Program-made: the position numbers and the translations under genes
The notes under the pieces: model-generated
Seen by the model: only the letters and a program-made list of their open reading frames with translations
Databases searched by the model: none
What the model was told of the DNA's origin: nothing
Shown here: one piece after another, positions 6,216-7,774 of the stretch
Layout of the letters: every line of letters starts with the position of its first letter
Position numbering within the stretch: position 1 is the stretch's first letter
DNA from: Prochlorococcus sp. HOT208_60m_813O14
GTDB lineage: Bacteria; Cyanobacteriota; Cyanobacteriia; PCC-6307; Cyanobiaceae
Reading direction: 5' to 3'
Assembly: GCA_002025945.1 (NCBI GenBank)
Contig: MWOO01000188.1
Coordinates: forward strand, 62,001-126,000
Length of the DNA stretch: 64,000 nt

Positions 6216-7010
6216 TTAAATATTGCCCACTAAAGTTACTGTTCTAAATTCAATATCCTCAATTACTTTCCAAGGTTCAGCACTCCTTTCTGCAAATTCT
6301 AAATTTTTAAATCCTAGTTTTTTAAAATCACTTATAAAGTCTGGTTCATACCATGCTCCACTAATACATCCTGTCCATAGATCATGATCATTTTGCAATC
6401 TCAAAGGAACTCTTTTGTTAGAGACGATATCGCTAATTGCAATTCTTCCATTATCGTTTAAAACTCTTTTTATATTATTTAGAAGGTTATTTCTAGATTC
6501 TGGGCTTACCAAGTTTAAAACGCAATTACTTAAAATAATATCAACTGATTTATCTGCGATTAATGGATTTAAATCTTTATCTAATTCATCAAGTTTTTCA
6601 ATTGAACCTTCTAGAAATTCTGTATTGTTGAAACCTATATTTTTTGCAACTTCTTTAGAGGCAGATCTAGATAAAGAAAGCATATCCGGATTCTGATCAA
6701 CTCCAATAACTTTCCCTTCTTTCCCAACAATTTGGGCACAAATAAAAGCATTTTTGCCGCTTCCACTTCCAAGATCTAAGACTATATCATTTTTGTGAAC
6801 ATATTTTGTTGGATCACCACACCCATAGTCTCTTTCTATAACCTCTTGAGGAATTGCTTCAAGTAAAATGGGATTAAACCCAACTGGTGTACAAAGACAA
6901 CTTTCTTTTTCTTGTGCGGCTGATCCATATCTTTCTTGAATGGCATCTTTATGATCGAATTGATTAATTGCTTTATTAGATGTGTTTGTATTACAACAAC
7001 TTTCAGACAT
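6216..7010 (-). CDS. ArsM-like SAM-dependent methyltransferase
   Basis: Motif I of a class I SAM methyltransferase is clear (VLDLGSGSGKNAF), followed by GVDQNPDM. Two cysteines sit where arsenite methyltransferases keep catalytic As-binding thiols: LSNCVLNL before the RVL..GRIAISDI strand, and WTGCISGAW after it. Further cysteines occur as SCC at the N-terminus, CLC and DYGCGDP. I therefore call it ArsM-like; arsenic as substrate is inference, and other soft nucleophiles such as selenium or thiols are possible. The ORF track starts at TTG 7043 inside the upstream terminator. The ATG at 7010 (MSESCC) gives 264 residues and is much more plausible. Confidence 0.75.
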   Translation of the reverse strand: MSESCCNTNTSNKAINQFDHKDAIQERYGSAAQEKESCLCTPVGFNPILLEAIPQEVIERDYGCGDPTKYVHKNDIVLDLGSGSGKNAFICAQIVGKEGKVIGVDQNPDMLSLSRSASKEVAKNIGFNNTEFLEGSIEKLDELDKDLNPLIADKSVDIILSNCVLNLVSPESRNNLLNNIKRVLNDNGRIAISDIVSNKRVPLRLQNDHDLWTGCISGAWYEPDFISDFKKLGFKNLEFAERSAEPWKVIEDIEFRTVTLVGNI

Positions 7011-7044: not shown

Positions 7045-7073
7045 AAAAAAGCCCCTGAAAAAGGGGCTTTTAA
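7045..7073 (-). terminator. Rho-independent terminator of the PirA-like gene
   Basis: The sequence reads AAAAGCCCCTTTTTCAGGGGCTTTTTTTTT on the minus strand: a GC-rich stem (AAGCCCC/GGGGCTT) closed by a short loop and followed by nine T. It lies about 15 nt after the stop of the DUF4278 gene and before the methyltransferase. It is one of the clearest intrinsic terminators in the window and isolates the riboswitch unit from downstream genes. Confidence 0.88.
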
Positions 7074-7087
7074 TTTGTTTAATTAAA

Positions 7088-7261
7088 TTATTTAGTGTAA
7101 TTTACACCTCTGTAATTTAATTCTGCTTTTTCATTACTTGAAGAAGCGTCATCCATTCTGTTGGTGTATACGTTTCTTCTGTAGGTAAGTTCAACAAGTT
7201 GCTTTTTAGCAGCTTCTTTGTTTTGAACGTAGTTTTTACCTCTGTAAGTTAAAGTAGTCAT
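7088..7261 (-). CDS. pirA: PirA-like DUF4278 small protein under glutamine riboswitch control
   Basis: From ATG 7261 the protein is 57 residues with two copies of the DUF4278 signature, LTYRGKNYVQ near the start and LNYRGVNYTK at the end, and a related LTYRRNVYTNR between them. DUF4278 includes Synechocystis PirA, which binds PII and thereby changes flux into arginine synthesis. Assignment here is by domain and by the upstream riboswitch, not by a PII-binding test. The ORF track extends to ATG 7297, but those extra 12 codons lie within the conserved riboswitch RNA, so the internal ATG is preferred. No good Shine-Dalgarno sequence precedes ATG 7261. A strong terminator follows. Confidence 0.78.
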   Translation of the reverse strand: MTTLTYRGKNYVQNKEAAKKQLVELTYRRNVYTNRMDDASSSNEKAELNYRGVNYTK

Positions 7262-7267
7262 GTTTCG

Positions 7268-7354
7268 ATGTGACAAAACGGCCATCCCCCGTTCCATGGT
7301 ATGACTCGAACTGCGCCCTCAATTGAGGGTGAACGAAAAAGTAGCAAAAGCTAC
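7268..7354 (-). promoter_or_regulatory. Downstream-peptide (glutamine-II type) riboswitch
   Basis: On the minus strand the leader reads CGTTCACCCTCAATTGAGGG, then CGCAGTTCGAGTCATACCAT and GGAACGGGG. The CGUUCACCC start, a stem formed by CCCTC/GAGGG, the CGCAGUUCGAGUC segment and the ACGGGG element just before a short peptide gene match what I recall of the Downstream-peptide RNA motif. That motif is a glutamine-binding relative of the glnA RNA in marine cyanobacteria and cyanophages. The downstream gene encodes a DUF4278 peptide, which is the expected partner. Ligand binding and whether glutamine raises or lowers expression are not shown by sequence. Confidence 0.82.
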
Positions 7355-7360
7355 CAAATT

Positions 7361-7390
7361 ATTATAAGCGTATTTTTCTAGTGATGTCTA
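7361..7390 (-). promoter_or_regulatory. Sigma70-type promoter for the riboswitch-pirA unit
   Basis: On the minus strand a perfect TATAAT (7366-7361) is preceded by TAGACA (7390-7385), five of six matches to TTGACA, with an 18-nt spacer. Transcription would begin near 7354, so the RNA would start almost at once with GGTAGCTTTTGCTAC, a small hairpin, and then the riboswitch. The transcription start is inferred, not observed. Confidence 0.7.
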
Positions 7391-7516: not shown

Positions 7517-7774
7517 ATGACAAGTTTTTTATATTTCTTGGGAAATACCTTAAGGTGGCCAGTTCTAAAGCCAAAAGAATTTTTTTCATTACATGCATAT
7601 TTTTCAATCATTTATTTGATAACTTTTACTTTGAGTAAATATGACGTAAGCCAATCAAATTTAGTTTTTACTTTAGGAATTCTTGCACCTCTTTTAATCG
7701 CGATTGGTCAAGGACTTCCAATTGATTGCCTTGATATGGAATCATCTTTGTTGAAGGAATTAAAAACTAAATAA
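7517..7774 (+). CDS. Small two-helix membrane protein of unknown function
   Basis: The 85-residue protein has two hydrophobic stretches, about residues 26-40 (AYFSIIYLITFTL) and 49-63 (LVFTLGILAPLLIAIG), with a short acidic C-terminal tail containing DCLDME. No family is recognised. It is convergent with the Nfu gene and shares the intergenic region with the oppositely oriented pirA promoter. Coding is supported by the open frame, the ATG start and the membrane-like composition. Confidence 0.6.
   Translation: MTSFLYFLGNTLRWPVLKPKEFFSLHAYFSIIYLITFTLSKYDVSQSNLVFTLGILAPLLIAIGQGLPIDCLDMESSLLKELKTK

What the first reader, a model, noticed from the sequence alone, without database searches (positions are those of the whole stretch)
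7262..7354. Downstream-peptide glutamine riboswitch directly controlling a PirA-like PII-interaction peptide
The leader carries CGTTCACCC...GAGGG, CGCAGTTCGAGTC and GGAACGGGG in the order I recall for the Downstream-peptide (glutamine-II) RNA, and the following gene is a DUF4278 peptide. DUF4278 protein PirA in Synechocystis binds PII and changes arginine-pathway flux. Together they would form a very compact glutamine-to-PII feedback unit: promoter, aptamer, 57-residue peptide and terminator within about 350 nt.
Basis: partly seen in the sequence, partly recalled or inferred. Interest (0 to 1): 0.72.

Follow-up and report, generated by a model that had tools for sequence, protein, structure and literature searches.

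The report
Glutamine riboswitch controlling a DUF4278 microprotein
This Prochlorococcus-type genome carries a known kind of glutamine-sensing RNA switch in front of a tiny protein that appears to be made only when nitrogen is plentiful; the switch and its pairing with this protein family are already published, but the protein is related to part of a glutamine-synthetase inhibitor (IF17) and not, as proposed, to the PII-binding peptide PirA.

Summary
On the minus strand, window 7281-7338 matches Rfam Glutamine-II (RF01704) at 66 bits, E=1e-13 (gathering 33). It lies 20 nt before a 57-aa ORF (7088-7261) that is Pfam DUF4278 (42.9 bits; cut-off 25.3). A good -10/-35 and a terminator complete a unit of about 350 nt.

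The riboswitch-DUF4278 pairing in marine picocyanobacteria is published, including an ON switch in Prochlorococcus. The PirA link is not supported: PirA is reported absent from marine picocyanobacteria; the only DUF4278 proteins in a close Synechocystis relative are two 149-aa ORFs, none near PirA's 51 aa; and DUF4278 is the N-terminal domain of the glutamine synthetase inhibitor IF17. The peptide has IF17's three 'LxYRGxxY' repeats but lacks the IF7-like inhibitory tail.

It recurs in 116 of 131 relatives' leaders at fixed spacing. The peptide's synonymous sites are about six-fold more conserved than its neighbours', with psbA-like codon bias, suggesting an abundant protein. Most likely a double nitrogen gate (NtcA off AND glutamine high) on an abundant YRG-repeat microprotein whose partner is unknown.

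The parts
7385..7390 (-). -35-like hexamer TAGACA
   Evidence: consensus scan, 11 of 12 with the -10, spacer 18
7361..7366 (-). -10 hexamer TATAAT; identical in 11 relatives
   Evidence: a -10-like hexamer (at least 5 of 6) starts 12-13 nt before the NtcA box in 60 of 65 leaders that have one
7341..7354 (-). NtcA box GTA-N8-TAC (GTAGCTTTTGCTAC) starting at the predicted transcription start; as RNA a 5' hairpin
   Evidence: box in 116 of 131 distinct Gln-II leaders, 17-23 nt before CGTTC, against 6 of 1310 control tiles
7281..7338 (-). Glutamine-II (Downstream-peptide, type 2 glutamine riboswitch) aptamer
   Evidence: RF01704 66 bits, E=1e-13
7262..7280 (-). linker between aptamer and start codon (expression platform); no clear Shine-Dalgarno in this subclade
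   Evidence: mechanism inconclusive
7088..7261 (-). 57-aa DUF4278 peptide with three LxYR repeats (LTYRGKNY, LTYRRNVY, LNYRGVNY)
   Evidence: PF14105 42.9 bits; conserved, syntenic and hyperconserved in 11 relatives
7047..7071 (-). intrinsic terminator AAAAGCCCCTTTTTCAGGGGCTTTT followed by a T run

Best explanation
A doubly nitrogen-gated gene for a small, probably abundant YRG-repeat (DUF4278) protein. Under nitrogen limitation NtcA binds the operator at +1 to +14 and blocks transcription (inferred from the box and its position). When nitrogen is in excess NtcA leaves, the leader is transcribed, and glutamine binding stabilises the pseudoknot and raises translation (ON switch: shown in the literature for Prochlorococcus relatives, inferred here). 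The product acts as a free-standing equivalent of the IF17 N-terminal domain, most likely by binding a protein partner. That partner is unknown: glutamine synthetase is the candidate named in the literature, and PII/PirA-type action is not specifically supported.
For: Aptamer and DUF4278. 29 of 31 sampled downstream peptides match DUF4278 and 123 of 131 begin with a YRG repeat. NtcA box in 116 of 131 leaders at fixed spacing, with the -10 at a fixed distance before it, which puts the box start at the transcription start. Yfr6 has a mapped first transcribed G preceded by a TATA element and falls under nitrogen depletion (PMC1242208), and its start is about 20 nt before the motif. Type-2 riboswitch activates expression on glutamine, is linked to DUF4278, and MED4 PMM1846 has an NtcA motif (PMC6316151). 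IF17 and three other DUF4278 genes in distant cyanobacteria sit behind the other glutamine aptamer class (RF01739), also with a GTAN8TAC box 22-26 nt upstream. Peptide synonymous divergence 0.043 against 0.281 and 0.232 for neighbours, similar to psbA at 0.064; NNC codons 11 of 15 against 19% for window ORFs, p=9e-6.
Against: No glutamine binding, NtcA binding or transcription start was measured for this locus. Thermodynamic modelling of start-codon accessibility is only weakly in the ON direction over all leaders (0.43 free, 0.58 bound) and fails for close relatives of the window leader. The peptide partner is unknown. The leaders are related and come from the best-scoring hits, so the counts are not independent.
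Confidence: 0.75

Rival explanations
1. The peptide is a glutamine synthetase inhibitor (IF-like): the YRG domain alone binds and inactivates picocyanobacterial GS.
For: DUF4278 is the IF17 N-terminus; the same nitrogen-excess control logic as gifB; arginine-rich; suggested as possible in PMC6316151. Weak alignment of the peptide to the S. salina IF17 N-terminus (31% over 55 aa, E=0.001).
Against: The IF7-like C-terminal half of IF17, which resembles the free inhibitor IF7, is missing: no similarity of the peptide to IF7 and no IF7 relative in three Prochlorococcus genomes. The IF17 N-terminus is reported dispensable for inhibition, and IF-type control was reported ruled out in this clade (PMC6316151).
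Confidence: 0.2
2. The peptide is PirA-like: it binds PII and relieves or blocks NAGK activation.
For: Small, basic, NtcA-repressed logic like PirA; PII family genes are present in relatives.
Against: PirA reported absent from marine picocyanobacteria; no DUF4278 ORF near 51 aa in a close Synechocystis relative; PirA present in Anabaena 7120, described as having gifA only in a paper that defines gifB by DUF4278.
Confidence: 0.07
3. The transcript is a dual-function or mainly regulatory RNA (as once proposed for Yfr6), and the nucleotide conservation reflects RNA function.
For: Nucleotide conservation of the ORF is extreme and includes synonymous sites; Yfr6 was first called an ncRNA with antisense partner Yfr14.
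Against: Conservation stops at the stop codon (divergence about 0.00-0.04 in the ORF, 0.10-0.19 after it); NNC-rich codons resemble psbA; relatives vary freely at nucleotide level but keep the YRG repeats.
Confidence: 0.1

Closest known systems
Type 2 glutamine riboswitch / Downstream-peptide / Glutamine-II (RF01704)
   Same: Sequence, structure, position before a small DUF4278 gene, picocyanobacterial host, several copies per genome
   Different: Nothing essential; the window subclade lacks the usual GGAG/GAGGA-like Shine-Dalgarno before the start codon
Prochlorococcus MED4 PMM1846 unit and the yfr6 locus
   Same: About 7 kDa DUF4278 protein, type-2 riboswitch, NtcA motif (PMM1846); own genome also has a yfr6-like unit with a 33-aa peptide (L001)
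   Different: The window gene is probably the PMM1846-type orthologue, but this was not checked against the MED4 sequence
IF17 (GifB) of Synechocystis
   Same: Three YRG repeats of DUF4278, a glutamine riboswitch and a GTAN8TAC box upstream
   Different: IF17 has an IF7-like C-terminal half; its aptamer is class I (RF01739); its box appears to overlap the promoter rather than start at +1 (inspection, start sites not mapped here)
PirA (Ssr0692)
   Same: Small, reported NtcA-repressed nitrogen-excess protein
   Different: Not found among DUF4278 proteins; reported absent from marine picocyanobacteria; no glutamine riboswitch described for pirA in the papers read here

Membership tests
Glutamine-II riboswitch (RF01704) | Covariance-model match above the gathering score | tested here: met
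   66 bits against 33, E=1e-13
Glutamine-II riboswitch (RF01704) | Pseudoknot CGUUC/GAACG with P1 and P2 | tested here: met
   Both strands present in the window and in the relatives collected by motif
Glutamine-II riboswitch (RF01704) | Selective glutamine binding and gene activation | not testable with these tools
   Published for relatives, not for this RNA
DUF4278 (PF14105) | Profile match above the curated cut-off | tested here: met
   42.9 bits against 25.3
IF17 / GifB | N-terminal YRG-repeat DUF4278 domain | tested here: met
IF17 / GifB | IF7-like C-terminal half | tested here: not met
   The ORF ends after the third repeat; no IF7 similarity
PirA | Sequence homology to Ssr0692 | tested here: inconclusive
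   PirA sequence not obtained; indirect evidence is against
PirA | Binding to PII | not testable with these tools
   needs pull-down or interferometry
NtcA-repressed promoter | GTAN8TAC box overlapping the transcription start or -10 | tested here: met
   Box at 7341-7354, -10 at 7361-7366, start position predicted, not mapped
NtcA-repressed promoter | NtcA binding and derepression by ammonium | not testable with these tools
   Yfr6 transcript reported reduced in nitrogen depletion; not this gene

The most novel reading that the evidence does not exclude
The YRG-repeat peptides are an abundant, psbA-like-translated class of nitrogen-excess microproteins built from two to four copies of a 21-23 residue repeat. 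They are controlled by a fused module in which an NtcA operator sits at +1 to +14 (and becomes a 5' RNA hairpin), followed directly by a glutamine aptamer. They bind a partner, retained in Prochlorococcus, that IF17's N-terminal domain also recognises.
Probability: 0.3. Interest if true: 0.6.

Novelty: new member of a known kind. Interest (0 to 1): 0.33.

Why it matters
How glutamine synthetase and nitrogen flow are controlled in marine picocyanobacteria is stated to be unclear (PMC6316151). This locus shows that the peptide is under strong selection, probably abundant, and gated by two independent nitrogen signals. It also shows that it should be tested against IF17-type partners first rather than against PII.

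Tried and rejected
(1) In-frame AUG inside the aptamer (69-aa ORF, 7297) as the true start: rejected, because the frame is not kept in relatives and many have CCAAGG instead of CCAUGG. (2) Hairpin GUUUUG/CGAAAC between aptamer and AUG as expression platform: rejected, because most close relatives have GUGUUG, which breaks it. (3) ViennaRNA modelling of SD/AUG accessibility in free and bound states: weak and inconsistent (an earlier version of the script, crashed). (4) The promoter tool's 'terminator' at 7355-7340 is the NtcA palindrome. (5) Phage copies of the leader: none found by blastn. (6) PDB: no solved relative of the peptide. (7) AlphaFold of the peptide: low confidence (pLDDT 71, pTM 0.28), with short strand pairs at the first and third YRG repeats; not used. 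(9) The NAR 2018 paper on the riboswitch was not held, so its content is cited through a review. (10) In one search the row labelled psbA was in fact a 365-aa neighbouring ORF; the correct psbA values are.

Full report
Observation. The Rfam scan of the window finds one Glutamine-II riboswitch, 7338-7281 minus, 66 bits and E=1e-13. It is followed 20 nt later by a 57-aa ORF (7261-7088) that matches Pfam DUF4278 at 42.9 bits. A -35/-10 pair with 11 of 12 consensus matches and a terminator complete the unit.

The host genome. The window lies in a 1.35-Mb, 76% complete assembly, and the same genus holds 1.6-1.7-Mb genomes, consistent with Prochlorococcus. It has three Glutamine-II riboswitches: this one, a second before a 33-aa two-repeat peptide (L001; the size of the Yfr6 peptide), and a third before a different 53-aa peptide (L003). 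In 151 Cyanobiaceae genomes, 97 have at least one Glutamine-II riboswitch.

What follows the aptamer. I collected 131 distinct leaders. The ORF starts 24-30 nt after GGAACGG in 125 of them and has YRG within its first 14 residues in 123. 30 of 32 sampled proteins, one of them S. salina IF17, match DUF4278. Lengths fall in classes: 33-35 aa with two repeats, 54-58 aa with three, 71-72 aa with four; the repeat spacing is mostly 21-23 residues. The window peptide has three: LTYRGKNY, LTYRRNVY, LNYRGVNY.

The missed NtcA box. 116 of 131 leaders carry GTA-N8-TAC starting 17-23 nt before CGTTC, mostly 18-20, against 6 of 1310 control tiles further upstream. In leaders with a good -10 (at least 5 of 6 to TATAAT), the hexamer starts 12 or 13 nt before the box in 60 of 65, which places the box start at the transcription start. 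For Yfr6 the mapped start is a G preceded by a TATA element, about 20 nt before the motif. In the window the box is 7341-7354. A single GTAN8TAC is not significant by itself (7 in the window, 6 expected); its fixed place in relatives is. The published review notes an NtcA motif for MED4 PMM1846; I found no general statement in the papers I could search. The exceptions are mainly one clade with 46-51-aa peptides.

Parallel with class I. IF17 of S. salina and three other DUF4278 genes in distant cyanobacteria sit behind the class-I glutamine aptamer (RF01739), and each has a GTAN8TAC box 22-26 nt before it. The same domain under two aptamer classes, each with an NtcA box, argues that the domain itself serves nitrogen excess.

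Selection on the peptide. Against 11 relatives with the same gene order, synonymous divergence is 0.043 for the peptide, 0.281 for the nifU-like neighbour and 0.232 for the 85-aa neighbour. Against the most distant relative it is 5 of 34 sites versus 35 of 53 (Fisher p=2e-6). rplL is 0.140 and psbA 0.064. 11 of 15 two-fold NNY codons end in C, against 19% in window ORFs (p=9e-6) and 70 of 82 in psbA. The conservation ends at the stop codon, and the NtcA loop and P1 loop vary, so a recent transfer of the whole unit is unlikely. The simplest reading is strong translational selection on an abundant protein; RNA-level constraint is not excluded.

PirA. The review and the PirA papers state that PirA is absent from marine picocyanobacteria, that DUF4278 is the IF17 N-terminus, and that type-2 riboswitch-DUF4278 units occur in Prochlorococcus and switch ON. 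In S. salina the DUF4278 model finds only IF17 (149 aa) and a 149-aa membrane-type protein, none near PirA's 51 aa. PirA-likeness is therefore not supported; I could not align the PirA sequence itself. Three Prochlorococcus genomes lack any IF7 relative, so a classical IF action also lacks its inhibitory part.

Mechanism. Shown here by sequence: box, aptamer, ORF, repeats, conservation. Inferred: NtcA repression, ON switching, abundance, protein-binding action. Energy modelling of the expression platform was inconclusive.

Verdict. A real and well-conserved example of a published kind of unit, with a corrected functional lead and a missed operator.

Noticed in passing
L003 1324-1563 (own genome): A third Glutamine-II riboswitch (44 bits) precedes a 53-aa peptide without YRG repeats and without an NtcA box; its aptamer resembles the crystallised RS01 RNA more than the DUF4278 type.
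   Followed up: partly
L202 and L203: Glutamine-II aptamers with an NtcA box before a 109-aa ORF with a hydrophobic stretch and no YRG repeats.
   Followed up: no
L138, L151, L176, L180, L187, L193-L195, L198, L204: One clade has Glutamine-II leaders without the NtcA box, before a 46-51-aa peptide whose second repeat reads LQYCGHE.
   Followed up: partly
L100 1246-1695: The second DUF4278 protein of Synechocystis salina has hydrophobic N-terminal segments and three YRG repeats: a membrane-type YRG protein without a riboswitch.
   Followed up: no
G302 and G161: Two cyanobacterial genomes carry 14 and 11 DUF4278 copies, many of them short open frames of 60-100 aa.
   Followed up: no
L145, L146 and a third site in G125: Three equally scoring Glutamine-II units in one genome (two read, peptides nearly identical), pointing to recent duplication of the promoter-aptamer-peptide module.
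   Followed up: no
window 7517-7774 (+): Conserved 85-aa ORF with hydrophobic stretches, divergent from the riboswitch unit, syntenic in 11 relatives, without a Pfam or NCBIfam match.
   Followed up: partly
window 6216-7010 (-): Arsenite-methyltransferase-like protein (ArsM family, below the NCBIfam cut-offs) downstream of the unit's terminator.
   Followed up: no
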